A DNA stretch of 64,000 nt from Enoplosus armatus (taxonomy: Eukaryota > Chordata > Actinopteri > Centrarchiformes > Enoplosidae). The stretch covers positions 11,432,333 to 11,496,332 of the forward strand of contig NC_092189.1 of assembly GCF_043641665.1 (NCBI RefSeq), given 5' to 3'. Positions 31,345-64,000 of the stretch are shown piece after piece (positions within the stretch are counted from its first letter, which is position 1; the number at the start of each line of letters is the position of its first letter). The notes beneath the pieces are model-generated. The model worked only from the letters and a program-made list of their open reading frames with translations, searched no databases and was not told where the DNA came from. The position numbers were made by a program, and so were the translations under genes.

Positions 31345-31350
31345 CACACA

Positions 31351-31389: not shown

Positions 31390-31391
<2 letters not shown>

Positions 31392-31548: not shown

Positions 31549-32597
<1,049 letters not shown>

Positions 32598-40582: not shown

Positions 40583-40605
40583 CTCATGCATGAGCCTAAA
40601 AATAG
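40583..40605. promoter_or_regulatory. 12-bp palindrome abutting a MEF2 consensus
   Basis: CTCATGCATGAG (perfect palindrome, 40583-40594) is followed one base later by CTAAAAATAG (40596-40605), a perfect MEF2 site (YTAWWWWTAR). Motif evidence only. Confidence 0.3.
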
Positions 40606-41801
40606 GTAAATGTCCCTGGTAAGAGAAGCTGGCACTGCTCATGGCTGAGCTTTTTTTTGTGCAATGTAATTATAGATGCTCTTCTGTGAGAGAAGGGTGT
40701 TTTTGCTCATTTTAGAAAGGAGATTCTTCTTCAGAAATATGTGTTGGAGTTGTGATTACTATGTAGTCTCTGTCTGCCTACTTCTGAGAAACCAGATTTG
40801 GACCAAATGGACCGCAGTCTCCTCGCCTCTCCTGCTTTTTCAGCATCTTTTGTATGAGGAAGTGGTAACAGAAAGCTTGTTGTTGCTGAACAAGTACAAC
40901 TGATTTGATCCTCAAGAGGTGGAAAAGATCTTTTGTTGTTATTTCTTCATACACGCCCTCTACCGCTTGTCCTTTTACCTCCGCTTCTCTCTCTCTGAGT
41001 CTCCTTGTGCTGATAGACAGATCTCTGATTTCTCTGCTTTTTTTAAGTTGTAATGCAACAATACAACATTTATGAAAAGAAAGAAGATTCAGCACTTGTT
41101 TGTGTCTGTACAGTTTCCTGTTGTTTGAATAAGTCTCTGTCTAGGCTGAATCACATCTTTTATTGTCTATTTTACAAACTTTTTACTTTTTGTGACTCCC
41201 AGATCTACCGGGTTTTGTCTTATCTGAGCTTTTTCTCTAGAGCACAGCTAGCTCGTCCCTCTGGGATGTACGACCAGCCAGTCACACACCACAACACACA
41301 CATACAGCTTCTCCCTCTTATTGGGATCTTGAGTTGTTTTACTCCTTGGCTCAGCATCTACTGTACAATTCTGTTGTATCTCTATCCTGTTTCCCATTCC
41401 TTTCCTTCTTTCCTCATCTCTTCTTCCATCTCTTTCGTCCTCTAAATCTCACGGCTCTTCCATCGCTTGTCTCATGCTTCACTAATCACTGATGAATCAT
41501 ATAGCCTTGTTCTCTCTCACTCTTCCTCTCTGTCTCTTCTGCTCTTTTCTCCCAAATGACCCTCGCTGTCTTTTTCTGTTGTCAACCTCTGTCTCTCCAT
41601 CTCATTAATCTTATTCTGCGCCTCCATTTGTTCTGTTTCCTGTCTTTCCTTCTTTTTTTGTTTTTTCACACGTGTGTCGACTGTGATAAGTGAGTACGAT
41701 TCTCAGGTGCTTGGATAAGTATTTCTGGGCAGTTTCAACTGTGTGTGTTTCTGTGGTGTGATACCTTTTTGAGCAGACCGGTGGAAGAGCCTCACATCTC
41801 A

Positions 41802-41805
41802 ACAC

Positions 41806-41848
<43 letters not shown>
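41802..41848. repeat. (CA)n microsatellite
   Basis: CA run with one CG interruption near 41809. Confidence 0.95.
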
Positions 41849-41852
<4 letters not shown>

Positions 41853-43111
41853 CAGTTAACCACCCTGAGGTTCCTGGGATTAAAACATTTTTACGCCATA
41901 TGTATCAGAGAAATTACCTAGCCTCAGACCTTTATTAGAGCCTTGACTTAATCTTTGCGTGTGTGTAGAAGGGGGATTTTAAAGCATGTTTAAATGACTA
42001 AACCTCTTGGTATTTTCAGGTTTTCCAAGTGTAGACCTTAATGTGTGTGAGTGTTTAAAGGTTATACTCAGAACTGCCCCTGTAGACTGGAGCTACGGTA
42101 GAATCACTCACTAGCACACATTTCTTTTACACACTCCTCTGAAGTGGTAATGGCTTTCAAAATCAGGCCGGCTTTCAGAATATAGAGGACCAATTCAACA
42201 GGCTTCCTACTTGGGATACATACTTTAATCAATTTCCTTAATTAGTCGTTGGCCAACAAGTTTTAAAAGAGAGTAAATCTCTCATGTAATTAACAAAATG
42301 TTTGTTTTTTTAAAGCTAATCAGACATTTTATTTTCTTACCTGAAGACGTTATGTTTTTAATAATGAGGGTTCTGAAAAACAGTATTGTTTAGGAACCAG
42401 TATCAAAAAGCTTTGAAGAAACCTAACCATGCCATTGTCCATTGTGTTTTATTGTCAATATAGTGTCATCATTGTATCTCCGTGCTGTTTATCAGCTCTG
42501 ATCTGCAGACATCATATGTCAGTGCCATGGACAGCTCCATGGCTCCAGTCTTGATACAGAATAGTTTGACAGACTGATGGGTGGTGTTTGTCTGTTGCTT
42601 CAGTTTGGCATTCATTGACAAGCTAATGAAAAAAAAATTGGCACACGTTTCATTTTCACTGTTAACCTGTTAGAACCCTCTCAGCAAAACACATCAAATG
42701 AGTTTGCTGATTTCAGTATTAATATCCAGCATTTTCTCACTGCTCACCCTAACCTTTTTAATCAGAGTTAATGGCCCCTCCCCCACTTAAATGGCACTCT
42801 ATGATGTGGTAACATCTGGCTGGACGTCATGTTTCTGGCCGACCTTCCAGCCCTCTACGTTTTTTATATGTGTGTGTGAGACAGACAGAGTTGCTGATAA
42901 CTGATCTGGAGCTGAAACAGATGGTGTTTGATCCCCTGGTCGTATAAACCCATTTGATGTCGGTTTTATAGAAATGTATCAAAGAGAAGCCACAGTTTAA
43001 AGGTCATTAAATATCAAAATCTGTGTCCTCGGAGCTATTATGTTCATCATCTATCCATTCAATTTTGATTGATTAAAGGGGCTAGAAATTAACCAAGAAA
43101 TGGTGCTCAAA
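41849..43111. other. No gene seen
   Basis: AT-rich unique-looking sequence. Confidence 0.4.
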
Positions 43112-43610
43112 GGATAGGTTCACCTTTTTTGAGGTATTAAAACAATAGTCAGGTGCCCATATGAACACTGAGAAAGGTTTTGCTTCCTCCTTTCTGTTCT
43201 TACTGGACATTAAAAGATCCCTTCCTGATGTGCTTTCAATGGCAGAGATGGGGGACAAAATCTACAGTCCACAGTTTACATGAAGTTAATATCAGGCATT
43301 AGCAGTCTGAGTTAATCAAATCAAGTGGATTTCTTCCAAAGTTATAGTCTTGTTAGTACAAAATTCCCTCTTTGTGTTTGCCTGGACAGTCTTTCCTTCC
43401 TGGGGTAGGGAACTATACTGAAAAGGACAGTAACTTTGGAAGATATCCACTTGATTTGACTAACCCAGACTGCTGAAGCCTCAAACTAGCATCAGATAGA
43501 CTTTGGAGTTTACACAGAATGAAGACTATAGATTTTGTCCTCCATCACTTACATTGAAACTGCTTTGGGAACGGATCTCTTAGTGACGGTCAAAGAGAGG
43601 CAGGAAAGGG
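43112..43610. mobile_element. Palindromic MITE-like element (GGATAGGTTCACC family)
   Basis: The left arm starts GGATAGGTTCACC. AACTTTGGAAGA, ATCCACTTGATTTGA and CAGACTGCT in the right arm (43430-43480) are the reverse complement of 43306-43350 in the left arm, and further pairing (gattttgtc..ccatc; ttacattgaaa..ggatct) extends outward. The two arms thus form a long imperfect palindrome around about 43390. The right arm is cut short near 43610, before the expected CCTATCC end. From memory this is a widespread percomorph non-autonomous DNA element, probably hAT-related. No coding capacity. Confidence 0.75.
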
Positions 43611-43685
43611 TGGAAAGGACTCAGCCACAGTATATAATGAGCGCTCTACCACCCTTTAATGTAATCAGACGTAAAGGAACTAATT

Positions 43686-43687
<2 letters not shown>

Positions 43688-43759
<72 letters not shown>
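43688..43759. repeat. (GT)36 microsatellite
   Basis: Perfect 72-base run, followed by (GT)n(GA)n at 43764-43780. Confidence 0.97.
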
Positions 43760-43760
<1 letters not shown>

Positions 43761-43868
43761 AATGTGTGTGAGAGAGAGAGACTGGAAGGTAGATAATTAA
43801 TGAGGCTGGAAAACATTTCTCTCGCCAAACAAGGGCAGAGACTGCAGATACCTGACACTGCAGTTTTG

Positions 43869-43869
<1 letters not shown>

Positions 43870-43932
<63 letters not shown>

Positions 43933-43942
43933 GTGTGTGTGT
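43870..43942. repeat. (GT)n microsatellite
   Basis: 73 bases with two AT interruptions near 43921-43927. It is the second long GT tract within 260 bases. Confidence 0.97.
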
Positions 43943-44452
43943 TTCAGTGGTAAATGGCTGTTCAGTGGTATGGGGAGCAGCTCAAAGAAGATAAAATATT
44001 TAAAGGGACGGTTGATCTGCTTTCTTCGTGTATGTGCCTGTCTGCATTTATTTGTTAAAGTAGTGTTTTTTCATTTCTACAGTAATGGTGAGTAAACCTC
44101 CAGGAGAGCAGCACTGCTTCTTCCTCACTTCCACGTGTTAGTCTTGTGGATGTAAAAGTAGCAACTGTCTTCGTGTGCTTCCATATTGGTAGATTCTTCA
44201 CAGAGGGAACCTGTGGCTTTTCCCTTTGACATCCCATTGATTCTGCTAATCAATAGAAGCACTAGAAGCATCTTCGAGAGAAGTAACACTTTGCAGCTCT
44301 TTTGGGTAGTTTATGCCTCTCATTGCTGTTTTTGATGCTCATTTTCTGATTGGAAAACTTTGTAAATATGCTCTCAGGTTATGTTTATCTATCTCTATAA
44401 ATGTATTTTTCATGTTCTGACATGTAAAGGTTTGTGTGGTTGCAGCAGAAAG
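43943..44452. other. No gene seen
   Basis: Unique-looking sequence between simple repeats. Confidence 0.4.
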
Positions 44453-44522
44453 TGAATCAGAATCAGAATCAGAATCAGAAATTGTACTTTTTTTTTTTTT
44501 TTTTTTTTTTCAGAATCAGAAA
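44453..44522. repeat. (TCAGAA)n tandem split by poly-T (T23)
   Basis: GAATCA units repeat from 44455 to 44480, then attgtac and T23 (44488-44510), then cagaatcagaaata again. The tcagaatcagaa motif is common at the edges of fish interspersed repeats, but no body is attached. Confidence 0.85.
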
Positions 44523-44854
44523 TAAACTCTAAGTGTATTAGAGTTGTAATTCTGTCAGCTCACCTGCAGTCTCGAGGGAAAAGGTTTCACTTCCTGTGGC
44601 ACAGGATATCCATCACCTTGTCACGATGATTCAAAGGTCACCTAGGCAACCAGGTGGGCGGGGTCATTGTGTCACTCTGCCTTCCATTGGACAGCTGGCC
44701 GGTAGTCTGATTGATGGACAGCAGTGGTCCAGAGTTTCTTCTACCTCGCAGATTGATGAGTGGTTTATTTTTTCACAAGGACACACACAAGACGGATCTG
44801 TTTGCAAAATGGACAGGGCTGTATCTTTTCTGGAGGATATACACATACAGTGAG
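44523..44854. other. No gene seen
   Basis: Unique-looking sequence with no recognised element. Confidence 0.35.
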
Positions 44855-44874
44855 GGTGTGTGTGTGTGTGTGTG
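44855..44874. repeat. (GT)10 microsatellite
   Basis: Perfect 20-base run. Confidence 0.95.
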
Positions 44875-47628
44875 CTCCATAATGGCAGAAAGAGCATTAA
44901 TGATCATAGATTTTACTTTGGTTTGATTTCACTTATGTATCTTTCACCTTAATTTAATGTTAACGCCTGTTGTCTCTGCATAGTTTGATTCTAAATTAAT
45001 TATTTGTTTAATCTCTCTAAAATTTGTAACATGAGATCTTAATGTTTTCACGTTTTAACTGGTACTCTCCACTCTCACATTGTGGCAGATATTTTGGTCT
45101 AATGTGTTTTGAATGTTGCCTCTTGCGTTGCTTCTGGATTAGTGCAGATTTGTACTGGTGCACTGTAACTGAATTTACTTGACCAATTATCATTTCATTA
45201 TAATTAACATTCATTGATCAAATTAATTATGTAAAATCCATGGAGTATGAACACACAACCTTGGTTACTACTCTACATGAGAAGGAATGAGCTGTGGCTC
45301 TTCTTCTATGCACATTTTCCAATCACAGGGTGTTATTCTGTTTGATTCTACAACTGCATCATGATTTACTGGGTCAGTCGCTCACCAGAGCATTATGTTT
45401 AGTAAAAAGTCCATATCTTATTATGCAGCTCTTTAAAGTTAGTGTTCTCATAAAAACTGAAATGGAAAAGCAGTTTTTCACATTGGAGCAATGGGTGCTT
45501 TCCTTCATCACCTTCCCATTGAAGCAGGCACATTTTTGCCAGTAACACTGAACTATAATTTCAAGTCAATGGCCTAGTGCACTACAAATCACAGAGTTTA
45601 TGCAGCCATATGTTATAGATTGTAGGTGCCACATCACATCCTGTGCGACAAAATTATCTCAACTCAAAGGTCCCCCTTTGTAGCTTTTTCCTGAGGTTTC
45701 AACCACATCTTATCAGAGACCATCCTTCAATGGAGATGGGTTGCGACCACTTGTTATCACATGAGAGTGGTTCCACACTTAGATCACTTGATTTCACCTG
45801 AGCCAGCTCCATTCGCTAATGAAGCTCAGATAAAGGATGTAATTGGACTGTTGCGTTGAGATCATATTGTCTTACCAAGGCCTGTTGGAAGAATATCTGG
45901 ATTTGGAGAGAGACACGCAGGAAAGCTTGAAGGCAATACTAAATAGTTATGTTTGCTTTATATGTGTTGGAGGACTTTGTTTGAGTGTAGACAGTGACGG
46001 CTCCATTATTTCTATCATCCATTAAGAGCCAGCTAAGTCATTAGTGCTAGAAATGAGTCCTCCTGCACGTACACAAACAAACACAGCGCTGATCTCGGGC
46101 CTCAAACAGAGTGCCAATCATCAGCCATGTGAAGTTTGTAGTGAATGGTAATCAAACTGTGAGAGGCAGATAGACTGATGTCTGTGGTCTGTCCTGTGTG
46201 TGTATTCTCGTTGCGTCGTTACCACAGTGGATTAAACTAATTACATTTTAGAGAGAAGAAGCCTGTTTCTAGTTTCCCTCCAATATCTCACCGCTATAGA
46301 GGACATCTTACACTTCATCGTGTCTTCTCCTTTGTTTTCTCAACTGTCACCATGTCAAGTTTGTAAATGTTTCCTCAACTATTCAGCTGCTCTTCCTTTC
46401 CCTACCTCCTAGTTTTCTATGGACAAAAGATGTGCCTGATTACAGATTACACGGTTTTCTCTGCCTCAACATGGAGGGCAGCAACAGCTTGGGCAAAGGC
46501 GTTGCTTACCTTGTTTATGAGGATTGATCGCCTACTCCAATAAGAACCTGCAGCTGTACCCTGTATTTTCTTTTCTTTTTTCAATGACCATTTTAGATTT
46601 TTCAGGTTGCTTTTTTTCCCAAAAGTTGAAATCCATCATGTTCTTTTTCAATTAGTATGTTGTTTTTTATCTGAAAGAGTGTGGTGTAACCCTAAAAGAG
46701 GCACACTTACCTTGTATGATAACACTCTTTATACTATTAACTAATAACAAATAACCTGTTAATAAGGTAAGTCTGGTTGACAATGCCGAAGTAGTCGAAT
46801 TTAACCACGTTAGTAAATCATTCGTTAAACATAGTAGCCAACTTCACGAACATTACATGAAGTGCTCTTTCATCTTTGAGTAAGTTTTAATGTGTAGAAA
46901 GTTACAGATGGCAGCTTGAAGAACAAACGTCTGTAGTGTCAGTCTGTGTGGGTGCAGGTTGTTGGACAACTGCTTCAAGTATGAATGAACTCGCGCCTTC
47001 CACCACACAAGCAGATCCTCATTAGTTGGAGATTTTTCTGTTTAGACAAAGCCGAGTCAAGACAACATTCTCAGTTAAAATGACAAGAGTTGACCAAGAC
47101 AACGCTTAAATTTAGAGGACTAATTGGTTGACCTTTCCTATCTCTTGACCTCGTCTGATGACATCATAGAATTAGCATCGCTCGATGTATTTACCACACG
47201 CTCACTTTGTTTACTTTCTCTTTTATCTTACATCAAAGTATGTGTCTTCAAGAAGTACATTCCATAGTACATTCACACACGCAGTCAGACTCACACACAC
47301 ATGCATACAGGTGCAGGTAGGGGCTACGTGCATTCATGCAGGCTCAAGTGCACAGGTGGCATTTTGAATTGCTGTGTAATTGCATTTCTGAACTCAAGCT
47401 TGCAGCTTAGCCAAGCATTCATGTTCACAGTCAGAATATACACACACGCATACAAATTTATGACTGAGACCTGAATTGGTTTTCTAGACTGTAGACCCTT
47501 CCTCCTGGACCCTCATCTTCCTCCTTATCAACAACAATACGGCACTTAACTGGCTTAAGTTGTAAATCTCTCAACTCTAAGCAGGAGAGGGAGGATCACC
47601 CGGGGCTAGGAGTCAGAAGAGAAGGGAG

Positions 47629-47629
<1 letters not shown>
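44875..47629. other. No gene seen
   Basis: Unique-looking sequence. Frames under 85 codons, none with a recognisable domain. No repeat family recognised. Confidence 0.4.

Positions 47630-47653
<24 letters not shown>
47630..47653. repeat. (GT)12 microsatellite
   Basis: GT run ending in gcgcgc, a Z-DNA-prone alternation. Confidence 0.95.
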
Positions 47654-47661
<8 letters not shown>

Positions 47662-47861
47662 GGCTGGCAGACAGTGCAGTATACTGATAAGCAGGGTAGA
47701 GCCTATTAGCAGTTTGGCCTGCAGCCTGAATGTCACTGGTGATTTTTTTTTCTCTCTGGTCAGAAACATTGTTATTGTTTCAGAGCCAGTGGGATGTGGG
47801 ATGGTTTCCATCATGGAGTTCCTGTTGAATTTATTTTGGAAGAATCCATTTTGAATGAAAA

Positions 47862-47862
<1 letters not shown>

Positions 47863-47914
<52 letters not shown>

Positions 47915-47921
47915 TGTGTGT
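47863..47921. repeat. (TG)n microsatellite
   Basis: 59-base run with one GGG interruption near 47911. Confidence 0.97.
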
Positions 47922-48010
47922 CAATGTTAGCTATAGCGATGCCTCATCTAAGTGTAGATTTGCTTAATAATAAGCCATATTAAGGACCACTGTGCTCACA
48001 CTTCAATAGT

Positions 48011-48141
48011 TCAACACTTTGGGAAATATACGCCTGTTCCAGTAATGCCAAGAGTCAGAGAAGATTGATACCGTTGCCTGCCAACCTTATGGTGATGACA
48101 AAACTCCAGCAAGTGAGCAAGAACTAGTCCATCACATAACC

Positions 48142-48172
<31 letters not shown>

Positions 48173-48439
48173 ACACACACACTATAAAGCAACAACTTAT
48201 TGTTTTTGGTTTTTGTATGGATTAAACAAACAAGATATAATGTGTCAGTAAATGGGCTTAAGAGGTGCCTATAGGCTGATTTTGTTTTCTTTCTTCTGTT
48301 ACTTTCCAGTGTTTATGCTATTAAGCTAATCATCTCTAGGCTCTATCTTCATATTTAGCATTCAGACATGAGATTTATATTAATCTTCTCATGAGTCTCT
48401 CGGCATAAAAAGCAAATGAGCGTATTTACCAAAATGTTA
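48011..48439. mobile_element. Palindromic MITE-like element (CACTTTGGGAAATA family) with poly-C/(CA)n core
   Basis: The left end AACACTTTGGGAAATA pairs with the reverse complement of the right end (AACATTTTGGTAAATA, 14 of 16). Inward, agagtcagagaagattgata pairs with the right-hand tattaatcttctcatgagtc region. The right arm (tttttgtatggattaaacaa, ACAAGATATAATGTGTCAGT, AGAGGTGCCTATAGGCTGAT, ttccagtgtttatgctatta) is the familiar percomorph element consensus. The left arm has lost most of its matching sequence: it jumps from agattgatacc to the central gttgcctg/atggtgatgac part, then cacataac. A C19 run plus (CA)12 has expanded at the centre (48140-48182). No ORF. Confidence 0.8.
48140..48182. repeat. 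Compound (C)19(CA)12
   Basis: Lies inside the palindromic element immediately after cacataac, a point where the family consensus has a short C run; this is expansion of a pre-existing C tract. Confidence 0.9.
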
Positions 48440-50487
48440 TCATCATTGTCTAACTGGAGGAAATATTTAACAATGTAACAATAAGTAATAAAGATATAAT
48501 TTGAGACACAGTCTGTGATATGAATACAAACCAATGGGTCCCATTAACACCAGAATTCAAAACATCAAATCACTCTTAAACTAATTGATGTGTTTTCCAG
48601 ACAATAACTAAGTTATTATTGTTGTTTGAGGTCTTTTCCACAGCTATTCTTGCAGATAATATTTTGAATACAGCGGTAAAAGCTCATTTTGAATGCTGCT
48701 TTTTTAACATTAGCACTTTTTTAGTTCCAATTTCCAGTTTTGCTCTGAATTTGAATGACATCAATTAGGTTTGTATCTACATTATGTTGATTGCAGAGAT
48801 ATTCAAATCGCCTTTCAGACAATAAAAACAACATGGATGTATTTTCTATTCAAAGAACAGAAAAACTTTAATTATGTTAAAAGCTGGAGAAAATGTGATC
48901 ATGAAACACAAACACACACACAGTGCAACTGGTCTAATTAGCTTTCATTGTTAGGAAAAATGCATTTCGACATCTGAGCTTGGTGTTTCTGCATTTTCTC
49001 CTTTCTCTTCATAGTTTTCTGCTTTTAAGACTGTGAGGCATTTTGTCCTAAATGGCTAAAAGGCAATTTTCACTTTCCTGCCGCTCTTTCTTTCAATTTA
49101 GGCTCAATTTAGAATTTAGACTATTTACAAGTGTCACACTTACTAATACTACCACTAATGTTGACAGTACACTACTTTGGGTGTTGGTATACAAGAAATG
49201 AATGTACTTTAGAGTTTTGCACCGATATTAAATGATACAAAACGAATATGTGAGTGGAGTGGAGTGGCAGCCACTTCTGTTGCTCAAGTAAAGCCTCCTG
49301 TAATCACGTCATTGCAAAACCAGTTTGCTTCATAGAAAATGTGGTGAATGTGCCCTTCAGTTACATTATCTACAGCAAAGCAAAATTTAAAAGCACCATG
49401 AATGCATACAAAGTCAATGGAAAGATGTGAGTGCGGGCACATTCAAGTCCACTTTAGTTGAAAATAAGCAGAAAACGCTTAATGTGGAGATGCGAGAACA
49501 AAAAAGATTAATTGGAGTTAGTTGGTGTTACAAATGTAATGTAAAATGTAAAATAAATTTCCTTTGGTAAAATTGGAGATCAGTCAATGAGCACTGCTGT
49601 ATCTCCAGATGTACTGGCAGATCAACACATACTTTGGAAAATATCTGAAAGTGCTTGAAGCCTAGTTTAGTTTGTCCTGTTTCCTAAAGAAATTGAGAAA
49701 AAAAGAATCTATTTTAAACTGGTTAAAGGCGTTTCCTTAGTTAATCTTTATTCAGTGTGATTTCTCTAAGAAGTGTGAACCAGACTACAGGCAAATATAT
49801 CTCTTTTAGAATAAAATGATACCTATTAACTCAGATAATATTTGACCTTTTCCAGCCTGAGGCAGCTCTGATGATCCCAGATCACAACTTTTCTTCAGGC
49901 TCAAATCCTGCTACAGGAGAGGAGCAGCATTTCTGCTCTCTTTGAATCTTATCAAATTGAAAGTCAAAATGTCAAAATCATGACATAACAGATCTTCAGA
50001 TTCTTGACGGTCCACCGGCCCACCAATGCGGCTGCCCACTGGGATTTGTCCTAGTATGCCAGATAGTATGTACACCACTGGCTGGTTTCCTTCTCCTCTC
50101 TTGCCTCTAGTATGCAGTAAGAAGACTGTAACAGTCCAGTGTCCTGTCATTTACCTGAAGTCTTTAGAGCGGCTCTCACCACTTTTCCTCCTCAGTCTTC
50201 CTCTGACTGGTAGATTAGTGATAAATCAGCCGGGGCCAGAGAGGAGCAGCCAGCTTCAGAGAGGCCGTTGTAAAAGAGGTGACTGGCTAACACCAGCCTG
50301 CTGGAATTAGACTCATAAAACCACAGACCTCACTGACGATCCCATAGACTGTCCTAGAAGCACACACAGGGGCACATGCATGAAGCAGGGAGGCTATATC
50401 GTTCCCCTTGGTGTCAGTCCGTCTCTACGGTACTTTCCAATAAAATGTCCACTCTACTATTTTCCTTCTGTCAGTTTTATAATGATG
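48440..50487. other. No gene seen
   Basis: AT-rich unique-looking sequence. No exon, repeat family or strong motif recognised. Confidence 0.4.
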
Positions 50488-50773
50488 ATGTAGAGATAAA
50501 ATAATTAATTGATTAATCAGTCGGCAGAAGAATAATTGGCAACTAGTTTCAGAATCTGTTAATCGTTTGAGTCACTTTTCAGGTAAAAATGCCAAACATT
50601 CATCTGTTCCTCTTCATTAAATGTGTTTGTTTTTGTGTTCTGGACTGAAACAAGCAATCTGATGACTTTATGCAAATTGTGATGGGCATTATTCACTATT
50701 TTCTTGACCACTTGATTAATGAAGAAAATAAAAAGGCAGATTAATTGATAATGTAGATAATTGTTAGTTGCGA
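50488..50773 (+). mobile_element. Dispersed repeat B, copy 2
   Basis: ataattaattgattaatcag, cggcagaagaataattggca, aatcgtttgagtcacttttc, AAAATGCCAAACATTC, tgtgatgggcattattcac and aggcagattaattgataatg, ending ttgttagttgc, follow the family consensus end to end. Less decayed at its left end than the nested copy at 36776. Homeodomain-type ATTA cores are part of the repeat, so they should not be read as independent enhancer evidence. Confidence 0.75.
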
Positions 50774-53171
50774 TTAATGAGCAGGCTTTGAGTTTCTGCT
50801 CTGTCTGTGCTGAAACTCATTATCTACTAGAGTTGAAGTGGTTCAGGTCTTTTACTATTGTTGCTTGTGTAGCTGCGTTTTGTGGGGAATAAAAATGTAT
50901 ATTATGAATGTGAAACGTCCCCAACCTTGAAAAAGAGTTGGATTTCACTTACCATATCGCTCAGACCTAATAAATCTTGAGAAAAGAGGGATGATACATG
51001 AGCGTGTCAGACCAAGTCCAAAGAGAGGGACTGCTGGAAACCTGAATTTGATTTGGTTATTAAAGGAGGCAAGATGATGCCTTAAAGTTGGTCTGATAGC
51101 ACAATTGTCCAGGTAGTATAGATCCAGCATTGTCCAAACAGTCATTCAGTCCACCATAATCTACTCCATTCACAGGACTAGAAGTTGAGTTTATTGACTT
51201 TACATCTGTCATTGTAGGGTATAATACCAGAGGTGCAGTTGGTGCTTGTTGAGCCAGGAGAGAATAGATGCAGCTGAGAAGAGCATTGATTTTATCCCAG
51301 CGTCTACTCTAATTCTTCAATTTAATTTAATTGCAGTAAAACCTCAGATTGTTTTGATATCATTAATATCTGTAAGACAGCGTGATTGTGTTGCCATTGA
51401 CAACAGGATGGTGGTTGGAGAGACTATTCTGACTCCAGATGATCACTAGTTTTATACCTACACTAAAATCAATATATCCATCTCTGTTGCAGAGCATCTC
51501 CCCCTGCCCAACACCCCCCACAGCTCATAAACTGTTGGTCTGCTGCACACAAAGCACTAAAATATTTCTATGGCGTTTTTAATCTTGTGCTTTACATGTT
51601 TTACTGCCATTCTCATTACCTACTGCAGAGAGAATAATGGATGTAAAGAGAAAAAGGACTGATGAAGGTTTTCCTGTTGAAGAGAATGTGAACAGAAAAC
51701 TGTGCGAGCAGCTGGACTTCTGTTTATTTTATGAATTAGAAAGACTTTATATAGTGACTTTTATTTTGCAGTGTCAGACAGCATGTGTGTGTGTGCTGCA
51801 TAGTAATAGCACTAAAAGTTCACATCCACACACACGTACATTAATATATAGATAATTGATGTACAGGTAATTAATTCTTGTTCACAGGCACTGGCTTTTT
51901 GAGTTAAACAGAGAGATTGTCTTTGGCAGTTTTGATGAATTTATTCATCAAGCCATGGTTTTTATTGTGTTAATGTGGAATGAGGAACTAGAGTTTAACT
52001 TTCCACTGTCGCTCCACTTGTTCCTCACAGTGGTTGGTGGGCCGACCCACTCAGGCTCACTCTGGCCCCTTCTTGTGTTAACCGTACAGCAATGGCTTCA
52101 GTTAATCTAGATTTAACTAACAGACGCAGACAGTAAACAATAAACAAGAAACCAAAATACTTCAGGGATGAGAGTTATCATTCATCATCCATCACGGTGT
52201 CAATAAAGTTGAGCTTTCAGCAGCATGCCACTCTCCTCTCTTCCTCTACTCTCGCCTGTCTCTCCTGACATTCTTGGTTTTATATTATAGCTGCATACTC
52301 GCACTATATATTTATTTCTTTCAATAAGAAGGAAAGGGGCATTGGCGGAGGGGTGGTAGCAAACATGTCAGAGAGGATGTGGCGATCATAAAGAAGCTCT
52401 CTTGATGTGGACTTCTTGTGTGTAGGTGGGCTGAAGCTGTCTTCATACCTCACAAAAATAATTTTGCTGAGTAGCAGTTCCCATGGTAACTCATGACACC
52501 TCTGTATGGTGAAACAACGTGTCCCTTCATTCAGATCTCCAAATGGGAAAGTCGCATCCCAAGAGGACTCATTAGCATCTCACTGGTGTAGTATTGTAGC
52601 ACGACCAGTAGATTAGAGGGCAGCGATGAAGGATGGACTGGTGACGAAGGTAGTCTGGTCATAGGACAGTCTACCGAATCACCTGGTGTCCTTCTCTGAA
52701 ATGTTATGAATTACTCAACTTGCAGGCTGTAAACGTCATCTCTCTGGTCTTTGGCTGTGGAGAAATATCACTGAAACAAGTTGACATTTTGCAAGATGTC
52801 AACATAGACACAGCGGCAGTCTTGGAACTTTCCAAATGGCAACCATAAAATGAGGGTTTCCATTACCCCATTTTATAGATGTCTGAGAGTCAGGATTCTG
52901 GTGACTAAACCTACATTTTAAGGGGCAAGGAACTCATGAATGATTTAGAGAGATTTGGAAATGTACATGCTGGCATAGAATTAAGCTTCCTTAAGAGAAA
53001 GGGAATGCTTTGTAATATTTAATTATCTTGTGTCATGCCAGACATGTGGACTAGATGTGGTTTGTGCCCTCATAAGATATTTTGAGCTATAGTCCATCCT
53101 CACCACGAACATGGACGGTGCATGGTGGCATTTACCTACATATGTTTTCACATGTACTCACCTCACATACA
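50774..53171. other. No gene; RFX-like motif at 52477
   Basis: Frames at 51246-51449 and 51637-51855 look mildly protein-like but have no homology I recognise. GTTCCCATGGTAAC at 52477-52490 is one base from the RFX consensus. Confidence 0.4.
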
Positions 53172-53194
53172 CCCCCCCCCCACCCCCCCCCCCC

Positions 53195-53222
<28 letters not shown>
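53172..53222. repeat. Compound poly-C/(CA)n
   Basis: C run with one A interruption at 53182, passing into (CA)n to 53222; the same C-to-CA architecture as 48140-48182. Confidence 0.9.
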
Positions 53223-53226
<4 letters not shown>

Positions 53227-53930
53227 CCTGAGGAAATCTAAGCTACCTTCTGTTGTAAAATGTAATTTTGTGTTTGCAGTTGTAGCAGATATTCTAATAT
53301 TACTCTTTTATATTCAACAAGCATAGCTGCCTGTAATAATGGCTGCATACATTGAAAAAGAAGGATTTATAGAATTAATTCAGTATTTGCTGTTACACAG
53401 TTCTAAACTTGCAGTGAGTTATTGATCATTAAGAGTACTGTAGGCTACATCAATAAATAAAATAATTTATTTAATAGTTCCTCAAGGGAAGGAAATATTG
53501 GCTGGTTGGGATTTGGGCTGAGCTCAGCATTTACCGCAAAACAATTTATTTGACCTCCTGAAAAGCCCACACAGTAAAAACATATTTTTTGTACCAAAAG
53601 TTGAAAAGAGTTTGTTTTTTTTTCCTCTCTTTTTTTAATAACAAGCAAAACTGCTTTCTATGTAGTTTAGGGTGACATGTGGCCATGGCCTGGAGTAAAG
53701 TTTGTGTCTTTTCGGTTTGTAAAAGCCCAACAGACAGGAATATCAGCGCAAAGGTACACAAACTCTCTCTCTCTCTGTCTGTCACTTGCTTATTCTCTCA
53801 CTTTCACACACAAACTCACACTCAGCAGAAACAGGTGGGCTATTAACAACCTTTTTCATTCTGAAGATCTATATCCTGCTAACAGTGATGGTATACCAAC
53901 ATCTGCCAGTGAGAGAAGAGAGAGTGAACA
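53223..53930. other. No gene seen
   Basis: AT-rich unique-looking sequence with a short (CT)n at 53763-53775. Confidence 0.4.
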
Positions 53931-54470
53931 TTAACCCATAAGAACCCAGGCCCATTTCCCCTCAAAGGAAAATTATGGGGAATACACCACAGACCAAGTG
54001 GACCACATTGAAGACATTTCTGATGTGTTTTTTTTATACTACCCCTTAATGTCAAAGATCTGTGATGATACATATACGTTACATTGGGCGTTTATGGTAA
54101 ATTTACTTGTTTTATTGTTTTATATTAATTTGTTCAAGAAATATGGTCAAAACAGGTTGACTGTATACAGGACACACTATTAAAGCATTGGAATCGTTAA
54201 ATGGGTTTTAACTTACCTTTAGTATCAAAATAGAGGATTTTTGAAATTAGTTGCTTCCTTCACTTGCGTTTACATGTCACACCACCATTTTGAAAAGGTC
54301 CCGACCAATCACAGTCACATGACTGTGACATGACCACCACACCAGGATGTTTCGTATATGTCGTTTAGGGACTTAATGAGTTAAGATCAAGCACAAAGCT
54401 GTATAAGGAAGATTCTGGGGCCTTTGAAGTGTGTGTTACACTGGTGTCACCATGGGCTCTTATGGGTTGA
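53931..54470. mobile_element. piggyBac-like MITE with TTAA-type ends
   Basis: The left end TTAACCCATAAGA and the reverse complement of the right end (TCAACCCATAAGA) match at 12 of 13 bases, and similarity continues inward (ACCCAGGCCCAT against GCCCATGGTGAC). The left copy keeps TTAA, the target used by piggyBac transposons; the right reads TTGA, one mutation away. Length about 540 bp, no transposase frame. Internally CACAGTCACATGACTGTG is a near-palindrome. It matches a dispersed fish repeat I recall. Confidence 0.7.
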
Positions 54471-57298
54471 AATGTTTAGAGCAAGCTGTCGAGTTCTCTC
54501 AGGAACACACACAGATTGGAAAAAAAGACGGCTACATCTTTGTTTTTCACACCAAGGTTACAGAAGCATCACACTCATGCAAGCTATGTGTGAGGCTGTT
54601 AGCAGCAGCATCAAAACGCCTCAGCAGCAGCAAACTCAATTCACCACCTTCTAGCTGCAAACTCACTGGTAGAGCTCATCTCAAACTTTAGCTGCTTTTA
54701 CATGTGCAATTTCAATTTTTCTTTGAATCTCTGATGATCATTTAACCAAACCAAATTCAAACATGCACAACATTTAATCACTTTCAACCTTTTTAAGATT
54801 ACATAGCTGGCACACAAGCAGAGAAATACATTGGTCAGCAGACAGAAAAACAGAATAACAAGACTGCACTTCCAGCGTTTTACTGTCACTTCTTTTCTCG
54901 CCTGCATATTTCAGTCAGACTTGTTTCTGTTTGTAGGGCAGTAATCTTGTCACGACTTTCTGGTCAAATAATTCATTGTTATTTATGAGAAATTCCTCCA
55001 TTTTTCTGCCTATCCTCGTTATTTTTTGCCATTGTTTTGATGCAGCAATCTGCCAGTCAGATATCCCTACTCTTCCTTCCTTTATTGCTCCCTCATTATC
55101 TGTCCACCCCTATAGGTATTTACCATCTTTTTTCTTCCCTTTATTTCTTCTCTCCTTCTATATTCTTCCCTCCATCTCAAATAGCCAATGGCAGCAGGAT
55201 TTTTGTAGCATCTGGCTAATCGAGAGACATGACCTGCTGTCTTATTTATTATTTATAACTCAGATTTGACATCTATCTCCTGCTATGGGGATACATGGGT
55301 GGAAAACGACCTTGAATTTGAATGAACTGAGCACCATGTCCCATGTTTTCATAAAAGACTTCAGTTCAGGTGTTTTTAGAATGAAAAATGCATTGCCAAT
55401 GTTTCACTTTCCAATGTAGGAAGGAAAAATGTACCCTCAGATACTCAAATATATTTTAGCAATCTGTGAAATAGGTGTGGTACTTTCCCTCGACCTTGCT
55501 CTGCTGCTGCACTTCAGTTTGTGATTTCCTACATTTCCCAGAAAGACCTTCATCAACACCCACAAAACCTGCTGGGACCTGAGGCATTGGTAAAAGGAGA
55601 TGTACGGCTAGTAGAGGAGAGCTTTTACCAGGTTGACCAGTACAGAAAAAGTGACAACTGTGCCACTATGACTTGTATTTGGAGAACTGTGGACTTCTGA
55701 AGTAAATCTCTTCCTTTACTACAGTCATTTCTCTCTGTTTCACTGTTGAATGTTGCTGTTTAAGGGTGGGCTGACCCAAGTCTTCTTCTTATTTCCTTCT
55801 TCTACTTGTTTGTTCTTTTTACCTTCATTTCTCCTCTCCTTCTTCCTTTCACCATCCTCATTCTGTACATCCTTGCCTTTGCTCCATTTTCCAAGCTGGC
55901 CTATCTTTCCGTCACAACAGACTCCATTTCTCTCTATCAGTCTCATTTCTTTAGCTTCACAGGATATATCTGATCCTAGACCAGTACCTATCTACACAGT
56001 GTAGAAAGGAGGGGGAATGAAGGAACAAGATGAGGAGGAGGAAGGAGTTGGGCAAGGCTGCAGACACATGAATAAAACAAGTGTGTGTTTTCCCTCACAA
56101 GTGATGCAGCATTGAGTTGGGGAAAGAATAAAATATGTGACCACATGTTTCTAAAAGAGGTAATGCACACTTAAACGTGTTGTTAGAGCTGTAACTAAAT
56201 GACATGACTGTACTGTGATGTATATATGGGGAAATGTCCATCGCTGGTCACAAGTCAGTTCAGATAATGGTAACTTGGCAACTACTGTGTAGCATTAGTG
56301 GGTAAAAGAAAAACCTGTACATTTAAAAAAAGAAAAATTTCAATAAATAATCCAAGCCTCTTATTACAAGTGAGGAATAAAAAGGACATTGATATTCAGC
56401 AGGAATTTCAACGAAGAATACAAAAAAAATTGAGGCTTGGTAAACCAAATGTCGTTTAAGACACAGCACCTCGATTGCAGGAATGTTGTGGGCCTCTATG
56501 GGCTGTATTACAAATATTTTACTGATTATGTAGTTGCAGCTTTAGACAGATGTTTAACGTTAAACAGTTTGTTGGCTTTGAAAAAAAAAAAACAGACGTT
56601 ATGCACAAAACACTCGGGTATACCCATATGAAGATATAGACAAAATGTGATTCTAAATCAATTTTCCTGCACATTTAAAGCTCTTCTATCGCTTTTTATC
56701 ATCAAAAGAAATACATGGACGTCATCACTCACAGTATACCCAGAAGTTTGTGCTGTGTTGAACTTTGAATAACCAGAAACTCAGAAAGCCTCAGCACACG
56801 ATATTGGTAATAATGTGTATAAAAGGACTCGTGAACACACAACACACACACACGTAGAGTCAAAACAGTGAAACAACTATGGAATTTGATTTATAGATTT
56901 TATCAAGTGCTTTTTGTCTCACCACAGTGATATAGCTCTTGCTCTGCACAGTCTGTCTAACTACAGTGTTAATATTGGAACACAACAGTATGATTAGCAT
57001 CACATGTCAGAGACCTAATTTGCACTCTGTAGTTGCACAGTAAGTAACCTACTTAGTGGGAGTCATAGTTGACTGTAATGACTCCCTAGTGGCCTCCTCA
57101 AGCTAAGGAGAGTGTATGTATGTGTGTGTGTGTGTTATCATAATTATCTAGCTTTGAGGCAATTCAATCCTCCGATCATTAAACTTTCAACACAGCAACA
57201 CCCAGATTTTATCTTTCACTGTCTTGTCTCCCTCAGTCTGTTTGCCACTGTGACAAACACACAACAGAAACAGATAAAAACAAGCTGCTATAATAACT
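54471..57298. other. No gene; pyrimidine-rich 55000-55180 and 55740-55960
   Basis: 55490-55700 (cattggtaaaaggag, aggttgaccagtacag) has the feel of a dispersed repeat but cannot be confirmed. No exon. Confidence 0.35.
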
Positions 57299-57324
57299 TA
57301 TATATATATATATATATATATATA
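57299..57324. repeat. (TA)13 microsatellite
   Basis: Perfect run. Confidence 0.95.
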
Positions 57325-60300
57325 GACATGTGGATTCACGTATATGATCTCTTATACTTATAATAGAATCCTGACAAATTAGTCAGTTTATCCTTTGAGA
57401 AAGGTTTGTATAGTGAGTCTCTAAAATACATAACGGCTCCAACTATTCAAGGTCTACATGCTCAGTTTCTGGTTGTGATCGTGATGTAAAGTGTCTGAGG
57501 TTAATGACATGTCCTTTTGGGAAGATAATTTTTTTTAATCTAGCGTCTCTGCAGCTGTGCAAGCCAGACGCTGTGAAATCCAGTCATCTATCCGACCAGA
57601 TCCATGCAGTCACTTCTCCGAATCAAATCTGCCTATTAACTGTGCCATGAAGGCAAATGAGATACTACCTAATGGCTCATACCAGTCTATCACCTAATGG
57701 ATACAGAGGACTGAAATGTCCCCCACAGTATCCCAGGACACCCTGACCAGCTGATACAACAGCTGTTGCCCAAATGCAAAGGATGCATGTTACCTGCAGA
57801 AACACAGGAAGGATGTCAGTTGTGCCATCTGGCTTATACGAATCAGCGGCACAACTCAATGATTGAAGCCCCGTCTCTGTGCAAACACTGAGTGTCTAAT
57901 AAAGTCATCATGGGCTTAGTACCGGCTTTCTTTCCATAATGATTTTCACTTCGTTTTGGAAAGTTGGCAAATTGCTTTAAATACCATTCTCATTATTCAT
58001 AGAGTAGTCAAGAGCATTCTGCAGTCTAGTTTGTTTTATTCAACCCTGTGTTACTCAATGATTATATCCTGTTTGACATCTTTGGTATTTATTCTGCATG
58101 GCCTCACTGGACAGATGACAGCATGATAGGAATGTGTTGTTAAACTATTAGTCCATTCATGTCATTTTACACACCGCCCACCGCCGAGTACATTTTATAG
58201 TTCACTCTCTGAGTGTTCATTTCCATTACCAATTACAGCGAAGACTGTGAAGACTTTTAACTGCAAGTGTGTGACTCATCCTTGTGTCTGGTGTTTTTCG
58301 TGTTTGCCACAATCTGGTCCTCCTACCACTGTAATATAACACAAGACAGCAAATGCATCATTCATTTTGATGGCATTCTATATCTGTCTCACACCTCCCA
58401 GGTTTTGGAGGGAGATGGATGAAAAACACGGACATAACTTTTTTATTTATTAGTTGCGAGAGAGGAAACAGACAGGAGCAATAAAAGGAGGATATGATCA
58501 CAAAAGACAGTTTTATGTTCTTGTAATCACTTCGAAGGGTTTGAGTGACGCCAGGGAAAAGTCGGGGAAGGCTAAGTTAATGCTTTTGAAATAAGTATAC
58601 TTAAATATTAATGAGGATCTCAGAAAAGAAAGGTCATTTCTCAGACATAGGAGGAATAATAAGAGAGCTAGTAGCAACCAATATGATTGTAAGATGGAGT
58701 AGTAGTTTCACAGTAAAGGGGAAGATCAGTTTACTTAGTGGATTTGTTTAGTGATTGTACCTTATATGATTACATGTGCCAAATAAACATGACTGTCACA
58801 AGTAGTGCTACTCAATCTGTAATGTTGTCTGTGGCTCTGAAAGCAGCTTTCAAAAGTCTATAGAGTTATTTTCTGAGACATTATGACAGAAAGTCTGTGT
58901 TGTTAAGTTGGGGTGTGTTTGAAAGACTTGGGCATCGACCAGGCAGAGAGGGTCTTATGAAAGACACTGCAGGACCCGGTGTTTTATAAAAGTCAGGATG
59001 CCAAAATCTTTGTCATACACAGGGCATGCTTCTGTCCACAGTTTAAAATTAAGTCAACATTAACCAGCCACATGTAGAAGTTTGGGGAACATCCAGATGG
59101 TACAGAAATCAAGAATGACTCTCATTACTTCTAAACCGAGTCTCAAATACTTGCACAGACACACCAACAGTTATTCCTAATAGCTTGCTCTTAAAGAGCC
59201 ACCTAATTGGCATAATGTATCATGCTCACAGTTATGTGTTATTGTCCACTAGTAAGGACATATTAGAGGCAGAGAAATAGACGGGGGGAGGACGGGAAGC
59301 TGCCTGTGTCTCTTCTCTCCTGGAACTTATCTCTCTGTTCCTCTCTCTTTTAGCCTGTATAATTTGCCCTCGATGTGTTTGGAATTACATGTCACATCAA
59401 ATAAGGCTATCTGGCTTCTGCAGCCTTAGTGTGTGTGTGTGTATCCTGCAATGCAGTGGTACCACTACCACCCTCAGAACCAGATTCCCATTAAATTAAA
59501 CTCTGGGTTGACTTCAGTGTTCAGAATGAGTAGCAGGGGGTTGTAATATATCTGACAGACATACAGTATGTCATTATCACTGACCTTTCTTTCATCTGTG
59601 TGGCCTTCATCCCTCTTTCTTCTGCAACCATTTGCAGAAGCAGAGGTAACTAAAACCACTTTGTTTATATTTGGTGGTGTAGCATGTTGAAACACGGTGC
59701 AGCGCCTTCCTGAAAGACATTGTAGAATTCCTCTCAAAGTGGAGGTGTTATCATGAGCCATTACTGCACAGCTGGAGAAGTGTTTCTCATTTAAATGCAC
59801 AGCACACACACGTTTGGGTCAGCCATAATTTGGTGCATTAAGTATTATCTATGCACAGATTGTGTGAATACTTTATGATTGTGTTGAACTACTTTGGGGA
59901 ATATGATGGCGTAGAAAGTCTGCTTTTTCATAACCTGAATGTAACATGTATAGATGTATAGAAACGTTATACACACACACACACATCACAATGACTATTT
60001 GTTTCACAGTGGGCAGTAGAGGAGTTTTGTAATGGAAACCAAGTAACTGCTCAAAACCTCTACTGTCCACAGACTGACTTACAAACACGCTTACAAAAAG
60101 GGGAAAAAAAGCATTTTCATATCAAATATGTATCAGTACTTATGTCTCAAAGCAATCTTGTCACTTCACTTTCATGTCAATAAAGCTCATTAAATGGAAC
60201 TAAAATGAGTGAAACAGAGAATGAGAGGACAGAGATGAATAGTGTGAAGGAAAAGATACGAAGGTAGCTAACTGTGTATCTCACGTCGAGCTAACAGAAC

Positions 60301-61950
60301 CATCAGCAGCTGCAGATTATAGGACAAGGACGTCAAGACTCAGAGTCACGTTATTGGGGTAAATTTGTAGATTATTGCCTATCCTGATGTTACATAAGTA
60401 TGCATCCCACTCCCTCTCTCCGTCTCTTGTGGCCTGTTTACTTTTGTGTCTTTTACCACTCGTCTCTTTTGCCACGTTTAAAGTTGATGTTTTAATCAAA
60501 CAAGTACTCGATTGCTGACCTCAGTGACGAGGCGTTTTCAGGTGGCCGCCTCACAATAAAAGCCCTCCATCGATGACTCACTTGAAAGCTTTTGTGACCC
60601 TGCAACACCAGAAAATGTTTACATTAGCAGCAACTTAACACAGCGAGTACAGCTCATATACTGTGGAAAAGTGAAGTAGAAAACAGTGAGGATACAGTTT
60701 GGCCCTGGTCATAAGCAGGACCATAATATCACAGGTTGGTTATCACATGCACAGTGGCAACGCCTGTGATCGCATCAAGGAAAAGGTGCCAATGTCATGT
60801 TACGGCCCACTGACACAGGTATGACACTCTCGAAGTGTGGACGCCACTACTACACTATCTGTGTGTGTGTTTAATGTCAGTGTACTGCAATATTTTATTT
60901 GTACATGCGTATTTTAAGCGTACATGTTCCTGTTAACGGTTGTGCAAAAGGAGCAGTGCTACAGGAAGGGGGGGGGGGTGTTTAAGGATAGAGATAGAAA
61001 AAAATGGAGCCTTAAGATAGAGAGACGGGGAGCCTAAGACAAATTGCTGGTGAAAAAAAGTCAGCACAGCCTGAAGAGTTGAAGCAGCTCTGGGTAGTGA
61101 GCTGTGAAAAGCCACAACTGGGGACTGACTGAGCTGTTTTGTCATCTCTCAGTGGGAGAGAGAGCTTTTTCACCGGCCTCAAACCAACTGAGCCACTTTG
61201 ATGAACTAGGGAGCCTTTAGCTGTAGGTAATGATTTGGATCCAGCTGTGGGTGATGAAGCAGTCTCTCTCCTGAAGCAGGTGCCCAGCAGCATTGTCAAA
61301 AAACAAGAAACTGCTTCTGGAATTTGACGCACGGGTATCAAAGTGTTTTCTGAGCTGGCTGACAGCTGCGTGTGTCTGTGCTGAATGACTCAGTGTTTAT
61401 GCCAACTTCAATTGTATTTGATGTAAAGTGTAACAAGGATGTTTTTGACAGAGGTGGTCTTCTCTGTGATTACCTACATCCTCCAGTCAAACTAACATGC
61501 AAACCAAAATAGCAAGCTGAGGTTAGAGTCTCATTTATCATTTTCTGGGTATCATTTAGAGTCATTAAGAGTTCTTATCAAATCCTGGCGCAGATTATTG
61601 ACATATTATTTGTGTAAGAGGAAAAAATATACATATGTTGGAAGTAAAACCTTTATTTTCCACACAATGTTGCTCTGCAGCACCACACACATCACACATA
61701 TGTTTGCCAAACTGCCATCTGTGCAACATGCAACTGTGATTTATTAGAAATATCCAGGTACTGACACACACACACTTTGATCATACACCAATTTGATTGT
61801 AATTACGCCAACATGATGCCCTTGGAGGAAAAACAGCATTGGAAGCTACATTAGATAGCGGGTTCCTGTGTAGGTGGGTGGAGAGGGGGAATCATTTTCA
61901 GTGTACGACCCTCTAATCAGTATTTAACTTCAAACATTTGCTTGTGTGGG
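57325..61950. other. No gene; possible conserved block 57880-58270
   Basis: 57880-58270 is an evenly mixed, repeat-free, AT-rich block of conserved-element texture. A short poly-G lies at 60968-60978. Nothing else is recognised. Confidence 0.35.
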
Positions 61951-62110
61951 GCTAATTGGGGATGACAGATGAAGAGAGGCTAGCCTGCTCGCGGAGTGTA
62001 ATTGGAGGCTAATTCTCTGTGATTTGTCTCATCTCAATGGGACAGATCAGCGGTCTGGGGAGGGGAGATAATCAGGTGAACAAATCACTGTAGTCTGTCT
62101 CTAAACCCCT
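61951..62110. promoter_or_regulatory. Homeodomain/MEIS-type motif cluster about 0.7 kb upstream of the exon
   Basis: GCTAATTGGGGATGACAGAT at 61951-61970 joins a homeodomain core (TAATTG) to a MEIS/TGIF site (TGACAG). GTAATTGG and GGCTAATT follow by 62015. No frame, simple repeat or known transposon overlaps. Enhancer role is inference. Confidence 0.35.
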
Positions 62111-62190
62111 GTTGAACTGCTGGATCCGATAAGCCAAGCTGATGGCAGATCAGAGCAGCACAACATAACTGCATGCTGAATCACTGACTG

Positions 62191-62213
62191 TTTTTTTTGG
62201 GGGGGGGGGGGGG
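62191..62213. repeat. (T)8(G)15 homopolymer pair
   Basis: Direct reading; the G tract length is uncertain. Confidence 0.9.
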
Positions 62214-62735
62214 TTGTAGTTTTTTAAATCAAAAGCTATCTCAGTCAGGCAAACTAAATGATTAATCCCTGTCAGATACACTCTACAGTGTGGGAGGGAT
62301 GTTCTTGTTTGAGCGATCAGGTGCACTCGTCAGTGTGCGTACTCCTACAGTGTTTTAACCTGATAACACTAATGCCACTTGGCGTCCATTTTGTCTCGTG
62401 GTGTGGTTTGTTGACGCACAAATAAGGATTTTGGAGGGATGAATACTTCATGAAGACCTACAATCCTAAGGGCTCCTTAAATATTTGCATTTCAGTAACA
62501 GAGAGGAATTAAACAGCTAAGAAATTAGAGATTTACAAATTAGCTGCACTAATCGCTGACATTATTTTATTTTCATTCTCAGTAGTGATACATGTATACA
62601 AAGGGGCAAATAATCATCTAGCATGCATGCACACATTTAACTGTCTGCCTGTGTCTGTCTCTGTCTCTGTGTATGTATATTCAGTGGCACCGGCATTTAT
62701 TTTTCATGCTTTTGTTCTGCTGTGTTTTTTCTTAG
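62214..62735. other. Intron end leading to the testican exon
   Basis: A (TGTCTC)-like short tandem lies at 62643-62672. The last 25 bases form the polypyrimidine tract and acceptor (ttctgctgtgttttttcttag). A plausible branch-point adenosine is not unambiguous. Confidence 0.5.
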
Positions 62736-62781
62736 GATGACTACTTTAAGAGCTGGACTCCTGCCAAATCCCAAGACCGAG
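62736..62781 (+). CDS. spock: Internal coding exon of a testican (SPOCK) proteoglycan gene
   Basis: Testicans are secreted extracellular-matrix proteoglycans with an N-terminal region, a follistatin-like/Kazal module, an EC calcium-binding domain, a thyroglobulin type-1 domain and an acidic tail carrying glycosaminoglycans; they are mainly expressed in the nervous system. Seen: a pyrimidine-rich tract ending in cttag, then 46 nt open in frame 1 as DDYFKSWTPAKSQDR plus one base, then the donor gtaagact after CGAG. Known (recalled): SPOCK1 and SPOCK3 have DDYFRNWNPNKPFDQ and DDYFRTWSPGKPFDQ at about residues 60-80, followed by ALDP. About 8 of 15 residues are identical, and exit phase 1 with a terminal G fits the following Ala codon. 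Conservative changes favour SPOCK3 slightly, but SPOCK1 cannot be excluded; SPOCK2 (DDYIKSWEDNQQGDE) fits less well. The C-terminal SQDR, where relatives have PFDQ, is unusual. Neighbouring exons are outside the window. Confidence 0.55.
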
Positions 62782-64000
62782 GTAAGACTTCTCTGTCCTG
62801 GCCTTTTAATGTATGCCTTTTTCTTGGGCTGGAAAAGGAACAAAAAGATTGTTCAAATATGGGAAGAAGGAAGAACGTGAGGGCTCGAAGAATATAATAG
62901 AATCAGTATTTCCATACTGAACATAATTTAAATGTTTGAGTTATAGAGGGAAAAAGGGAGTTCTGAGTGTTTCTCAACTGATCCGAAATATATAGCAAAG
63001 TATAGTTATACTCCAGTGTTTCTGAACATTATTGATAAGCAGCATCTGCAATGTAAAAAAACACCCCACAGGTGACATATTTCCATATACTCCACCACAT
63101 AGATGCTTATATAAATGATTTACAATTTCAAATCATTATAAAACATTATCACATAACATTTTAGAAATACTAGTTCCTCTACAAATGTGTAGAAAAATGG
63201 AATAAAGCAAAATAAGTTATCTGAGGAGAAGGGGATATGATTCAGTGAGGAGAAGATGACTGTAAGGTGTGGAAGGAGATTATAATTTAAGTAAGGTAAA
63301 GTCTTTTGGGCTAGACTCTGGCAGCTAAAGGAATATGTCATTATTCACCTTTACAGTTTCCGCTGAAGTGGGGAAACTGGCAAATGAACAGAGCTGGAGA
63401 GGAGACAAAATTAATGGAAGAGCACAATTATGCCATTATGGAGAGACCCTTTTGCCCCTTCCCATAATGCCTCTATAGTTGATGTATATCAAACTGTCCA
63501 TTAAACAGTAAAGCAGTGTTCAGTGTGGTGAGAGCTTCCTGCCTTACAGTATATGGAGCACAGTGTAGGTATGGCGTAACTGAATGGGATATTTACCTGC
63601 TGTCATGTGACTAAGCTAAGAAAATAAACAAATGCACAGCCCAGTCATCACTTGTATTGGAAACCCAACCATCCACTTGTGTAATATGAACACTTGTCAA
63701 ATTGACAGAAGACTGGAGAACGTGGTGTGTATGTTTGTTAAAAAATGTGTTCTGCTCAAGTTCATTTTCATATCTTTAATCTCACAGAGAGAAAAACGTT
63801 ACTCATATGAAGATTTTCTTTTTAATAGTAATCAGTATTTGTCTATGAACAATGGGTCAAATTATCACATGTAATATAAGAGAGGGCGCTGGTAGAGACA
63901 AACCCACCAACTCTGCACTTCTCCTCAGCTCCTCAGCTGAGCTCATTGCTTTGGTTTTACAACTTTACTGTTTTGGTTCACTCTCATCCAGATATATTTT
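62782..64000 (+). other. Start of the following intron
   Basis: Begins with the donor gtaagactt. No exon encoding the expected continuation (ALDPxKDPC, opening the follistatin-like module) is seen before the window ends. The stretch is AT-rich. A short AGAGGGCGCTGG sequence near 63883 resembles part of a CTCF core but lacks its left half. Nothing else is recognised. Confidence 0.5.

What the first reader, a model, noticed from the sequence alone, without database searches (positions are those of the whole stretch)
62736..62781. A 46-nt testican exon anchors the whole window
The exon DDYFKSWTPAKSQDR with phase-0 entry and phase-1 exit coincides with the testican exon DDYF..W.P.K..D followed by Ala. 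It assigns an otherwise anonymous 64 kb to a giant intron of a spock gene. The divergent end (SQDR for PFDQ) could mark a lineage-specific change or a less-studied teleost paralogue.
Basis: partly seen in the sequence, partly recalled or inferred. Interest (0 to 1): 0.75.

Follow-up and report, generated by a model that had tools for sequence, protein, structure and literature searches.

The report
Fossil inverted copies of fish testican-1
The short exon is genuine testican sequence, but it sits in a decayed, upside-down duplicate of the fish spock1 gene whose apparently intact copy lies on the other strand outside the window, so it is an ordinary gene fossil rather than part of a live giant gene.

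Summary
In detail: window 62736-62781 is a 46-nt exon, ag|GATGAC...CGAG|gtaag, reading DDYFKSWTPAKSQDR. The window is C16:11432333-11496332 of a 580-Mb genome. The apparently intact spock1 lies to its left on the opposite strand, eleven coding exons at C16:11357133 down to 11265596. The window exon belongs to an inverted copy of that locus, 'copy B', from window 38802 to about 86712, so half lies outside. Copy B lacks the start codon; exon 4 has an 11-nt deletion, exon 6 a stop; exons 7, 8, 10 and 11 are broken; exons 3, 5 and 9 were not found. A second, more decayed inverted copy, 'copy A', spans about window -1259 to 34235. Matching blocks keep gene order: 20 of 23 (A) and 27 of 29 (B), reached by 0 of 20000 shuffles each. 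SQDR is most simply drift. Ordinary in kind; mildly interesting because Lampris, Centroberyx and Gadus also hold two testican-1 proteins.

The parts
62736..62781 (+). Copy B exon 2 (the finding): 46 nt, open, ag/gt present, DDYFKSWTPAKSQDR
   Evidence: 39/46 to spock1 exon 2
38839..38925 (+). Copy B exon 1 relic: KILSLLPVLRLFLSRETVVSGNVKDRFRD, acceptor and donor kept, no ATG in place, 48-nt deletion inside
   Evidence: 58/76 over part of the exon
38926..62735 (+). Relic of copy B intron 1, with ordered blocks matching spock1 intron 1 at 42809-42853, 54468-54557, 56022-56077, 58485-58686 and 59352-59804
62782..64000 (+). Start of copy B intron 2; copy B runs on outside the window to about C16:11519044
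1..34235 (+). Copy A, second inverted copy of the spock1 locus (chain begins 1259 bases left of the window); 17 of the 20 ordered blocks lie in the window
   Evidence: 5 blocks in 1-12000 matched the spock1 locus and no other listed place (capped list)
32353..32396 (+). Copy A scrap of exon 7 (34/44)
   Evidence: score 38, best of 30 shuffles 22
32792..32851 (+). Copy A scrap of exon 9 (43/61)
   Evidence: score 30, best of 30 shuffles 27
33280..33341 (+). Copy A scrap of exon 10 (49/67)
   Evidence: score 41, best of 30 shuffles 22

Best explanation
The exon is a surviving piece of an unprocessed duplicated pseudogene. A spock1 locus with introns and some 3' flank was duplicated in inverted orientation on the same chromosome; two such copies, A and B, lie head to tail upstream of the apparently intact gene and face away from it. 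Both have decayed by substitution and deletion. Exon 2 of copy B still reads well largely because it is only 46 nt long. Shown: homology, inverted order, broken exons, an apparently intact gene on the same chromosome. Inferred: no testican is made from copy B, decay is near neutral, and the duplication happened within or near the base of percomorph fishes by local segmental duplication.
For: Ordered inverted blocks 20 of 23 (A) and 27 of 29 (B), 0 of 20000 shuffles each; direct strand 10 blocks, ordered run 4, p 0.84. Copy B: no ATG in place, 11-nt deletion in exon 4, in-frame TAA and 12-nt deletion in exon 6, exon 10 acceptor AG to AT, exons 3, 5, 9 not found. Eleven coding exons on the minus strand matched at 70-99% in the own-genome search, where hits under 90% run into intron or carry exon-edge mismatches. 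In three-way alignment the copies differ more from each other than from spock1: 491, 482 and 423 of 661.
Against: Exons 1 and 2 of copy B are both open, keep splice sites and would join in frame. Seven random changes in exon 2 leave no stop and at most three amino acid changes in only 8-11% of trials, a weak hint of past or present constraint. Some copy A intron blocks reach 82-85%. No expression data.
Confidence: 0.93

Rival explanations
1. The exon belongs to a working spock gene on the + strand, and the window is its giant intron.
For: Exon 2 and the exon 1 relic are open, phase-correct and have splice sites.
Against: No start codon in place, stop in exon 6, frameshift in exon 4, three exons not found, others truncated. 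The own-genome search with the host's spock1 found only three plus-strand matches near the window, two of them with a stop inside.
Confidence: 0.02
2. Copy B is dead as a testican gene, but exons 1 and 2 are still spliced into a noncoding or short-peptide transcript.
For: Both exons open with donor and acceptor, in-frame junction FRD|DDYF; low amino acid change in exon 2.
Against: No ATG at the ancestral start; exon 2 identity (39/46) is no higher than that of broken exons such as exon 4 (80 of 89 aligned bases) or exon 7 (50/56), so no extra constraint is visible.
Confidence: 0.05

Closest known systems
Duplicated (unprocessed) pseudogenes
   Same: Introns kept, same chromosome as the parent gene, frameshift, stop, lost exons
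   Different: Two inverted copies, one so decayed that it is recognised mainly by intron blocks
spock1 (testican-1)
   Same: Exon sequence, phase and order; the host's own spock1 is the nearest sequence (78% over 181 residues)
   Different: Copy B cannot encode the Kazal, calcium-binding and thyroglobulin type-1 domains found in the host's spock1
Second testican-1 proteins of Lampris, Centroberyx and Gadus (P0115, P0087, P0092/P0118)
   Same: Extra spock1-type copies in acanthomorph fishes; both Lampris proteins are listed on a contig of the same length, so probably one chromosome
   Different: These are near full-length proteins and group within their own lineages; grouping copy B with the Centroberyx or Lampris second copy is rejected (p-AU 0.029, 0.003); Gadus was not in that test against copy B's second-copy partners

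Membership tests
Duplicated unprocessed pseudogene of spock1 | Homology to the parent including introns | tested here: met
   Exonic and intronic blocks in order
Duplicated unprocessed pseudogene of spock1 | Disabling lesions in the coding frame | tested here: met
   Lost ATG, 11-nt deletion, TAA, truncated exons
Duplicated unprocessed pseudogene of spock1 | Intact parent gene present | tested here: met
   Eleven coding exons on C16 minus strand; intactness rests on open exons and splice sites, not on transcripts
Duplicated unprocessed pseudogene of spock1 | No functional product | not testable with these tools
   No expression data
Working spock (testican) gene | Signal-peptide start, Kazal, SPARC-type and thyroglobulin type-1 exons intact | tested here: not met
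   the host's spock1 on the other strand has all three domains
Processed (retro)pseudogene | Introns absent | tested here: not met
   Exons 23.8 kb apart and intron blocks retained

The most novel reading that the evidence does not exclude
spock1 is a repeated duplication site in spiny-rayed fishes: either lineage after lineage duplicates it (Lampris, Centroberyx, gadiforms, and here two inverted copies that later died), or an old inverted pair has been kept alike within lineages by gene conversion and died in this one. Leftovers such as exons 1-2 of copy B and intron blocks of 82-85% identity may have kept a transcript or regulatory role.
Probability: 0.25. Interest if true: 0.45.

Novelty: new member of a known kind. 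Interest (0 to 1): 0.3.

Why it matters
It corrects a tempting annotation: an exon with the right motif, phase and splice sites is not evidence of a live gene. By span it accounts for about nine tenths of an otherwise anonymous window (copy A to 34235, copy B from 38802) as two fossil copies of one locus, though only about 4.5 kb of the 64 kb aligns directly (my sum). It also points to repeated spock1 duplication in acanthomorph fishes, which can be tested in public genomes.

Tried and rejected
No Rfam match at gathering score and no tRNA in the window. Shared descent of copy B with the Lampris or Centroberyx second copy: rejected by AU tests. Exact age: not settled. Holding copy B with the host's own spock1 is not rejected (p-AU 0.094), nor is placing it outside all 22 percomorph rows (0.171); the tree pairs it weakly with Thunnus (83/69), and that tree's bootstrap had not settled. 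Recent copying of A into B: not supported, since A and B are less alike than either is to spock1 (stretches chosen for likeness to spock1, no outgroup). Assembly artefact: unlikely at 74% mean block identity. Papers: searches showed no title or abstract opening about spock1 pseudogenes or inverted spock1 copies in fish; I saw listings only and opened no paper. The species was not identified; the nearest listed protein is Symphorus nematophorus, 94%. A script failed for a missing file and led nowhere.

Full report
What is there. Window 62736-62781 is a 46-nt stretch between ttcttag and gtaaga, reading DDYFKSWTPAKSQDR. Fish testican-1 proteins carry DDYFKSWAPAKSLDQ or close variants at this place.

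Where it lies. The window is C16:11432333-11496332 (+) of a genome of 579,668,879 bases in 134 contigs. A DNA search with window 62700-62800 gave two matches: itself and C16:11309823-11309902 on the minus strand, 79% over 80 nt, E 1.1e-10. A search with human testican-1 listed 59 matches at E up to 10; the best chain is on the minus strand of C16, with weak plus-strand bits at 11516298 and 11516992 and other chains on C33, C19 and C2 (which paralogue those are was not tested). Fish proteins and splice sites resolve the minus-strand gene into eleven coding exons from 11357133 down to 11265596, and the stitched protein has SPARC-type, thyroglobulin type-1 and Kazal domains. This is the apparently intact spock1. 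Its start codon is 75 kb left of the window and it points away from it.

Census. With the host's own spock1 protein, 72 matches at E up to 10 were all scored. All eleven minus-strand exons appear. Several of those matches run into neighbouring intron and so include stops; the exons themselves read open. On the plus strand of C16 near the window only three matches appear, 11510021 (one TAA), 11516295 (one TGA) and 11516995. The window exon itself is too short to appear. No further decayed copy was seen, but this search is exon-wise and would miss a copy as decayed as A.

Copy B. On the plus strand, fragments of the gene follow in order: exon 1 relic at window 38839-38925, exon 2 at 62736-62781, then pieces of exons 4, 6, 7, 8, 10 and 11 between C16:11508297 and about 11518567, outside the window. 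Exon 1 keeps acceptor, donor and the ending KDRFRD but has no ATG in place and lacks 48 nt inside. Exon 4 lacks 11 nt. Exon 6 has an in-frame TAA and lacks 12 nt. Exon 7 keeps its 3' half, exon 8 aligns over 52 of 222 nt, exon 10 has gaps and its acceptor reads AT for AG, exon 11 is partial. Exons 3, 5 and 9 scored no better than the best of 30 shuffles. Exons 1 and 2 would still join in frame, FRD|DDYF.

Copy A. From 1259 bases left of the window to window 34235, blocks match spock1 from 11321778 down to 11264056, again inverted. Of eleven exons, scraps of 7, 9 and 10 beat the shuffles; exon 4 beat them by one point (25 against 24), which I do not count; the other seven did not. Most surviving blocks are intronic. 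Five blocks in window 1-12000 hit the spock1 locus and none of the other 44 listed matches overlaps them; that call scored only 39 of 393 candidates and did not even list the window itself, so it is a limited control.

Colinearity. After a simple-repeat filter 53 inverted blocks remained: 23 in A, 29 in B, 1 elsewhere. The longest ordered run is 20 of 23 in A and 27 of 29 in B; the best of 20000 shuffles reached 12 and 15. The same order statistic on the direct strand gave 4 of 10 blocks, p 0.84. Aligned length is 3700 and 4843 columns at about 74% mean identity. Spock1 11322401-11342400 was not held and was N in the comparison, and C16:11362401-11422400 was never read.

Decay. In seven stretches where all three align, spock1 and A agree at 491 of 661, spock1 and B at 482, A and B at 423. 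This gives the intact locus the shortest branch, as expected if it alone is held by selection; but the stretches were chosen for likeness to it and there is no outgroup. Exon 2 differs from spock1 at 7 of 46 sites, 3 of them changing an amino acid. Seven random changes leave no stop in 69-71% of 100000 trials, and no stop with at most three amino acid changes in 8-11%. An open frame is thus unsurprising. The low amino acid change is a weak hint of constraint, weakened further because silent changes in the living gene are among the seven.

Age and kin. On 181 readable residues copy B falls among percomorph testican-1 proteins (95/92 for the node that excludes Genypterus), weakly beside Thunnus (83/69). 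Neither grouping it with the host's own gene (p 0.094) nor placing it outside 22 percomorph rows (p 0.171) is rejected. Grouping it with the second copy of Centroberyx (0.029), of Lampris (0.003) or both (3.1e-6) is rejected. Two testican-1 proteins each are seen in Centroberyx (92.6% identical), Lampris (78%) and Gadus (79%). The Lampris pair is a supported clade (95/93) and the gadiform copies form one clade with two arms (100/100; 100/99 and 100/98); the Centroberyx pair is supported (99/94) but left open. So spock1 was duplicated more than once in acanthomorphs, or older pairs were homogenised.

Verdict. It is the best-preserved exon of a dead inverted spock1 copy, and by span the window is largely two such fossils. 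How the inverted copies arose was not tested; local segmental duplication is the plain inference.

Noticed in passing
window 54201-54481: Young dispersed repeat: 39 other places at 94-97% identity were listed over this stretch alone (capped at 40 scored of 471 candidates).
   Followed up: no
window 3491-4287 and 10540-10802: Older dispersed repeats with many listed matches at roughly 70-88% on several contigs.
   Followed up: no
window 11450-11655 and 23566-23754: Copy A intron blocks of 82% and 85% identity to spock1 introns, above the 74% mean; possible retained noncoding elements or gene conversion.
   Followed up: no
window 13470-13513: A run of 44 C.
   Followed up: no
L042:4314-6857 (C16:11599314-11601857, +): Long open frame of a cadherin-family gene (Pfam Cadherin, Cadherin_2, Cadherin_C_2), 80 kb right of copy B; protocadherin-like by my reading.
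   Followed up: partly
P0105 (listed as Lepidogalaxias salamandroides): This testican-1 groups with Gadus and Merluccius (100/99), odd for that species name; perhaps a label or sample problem.
   Followed up: no
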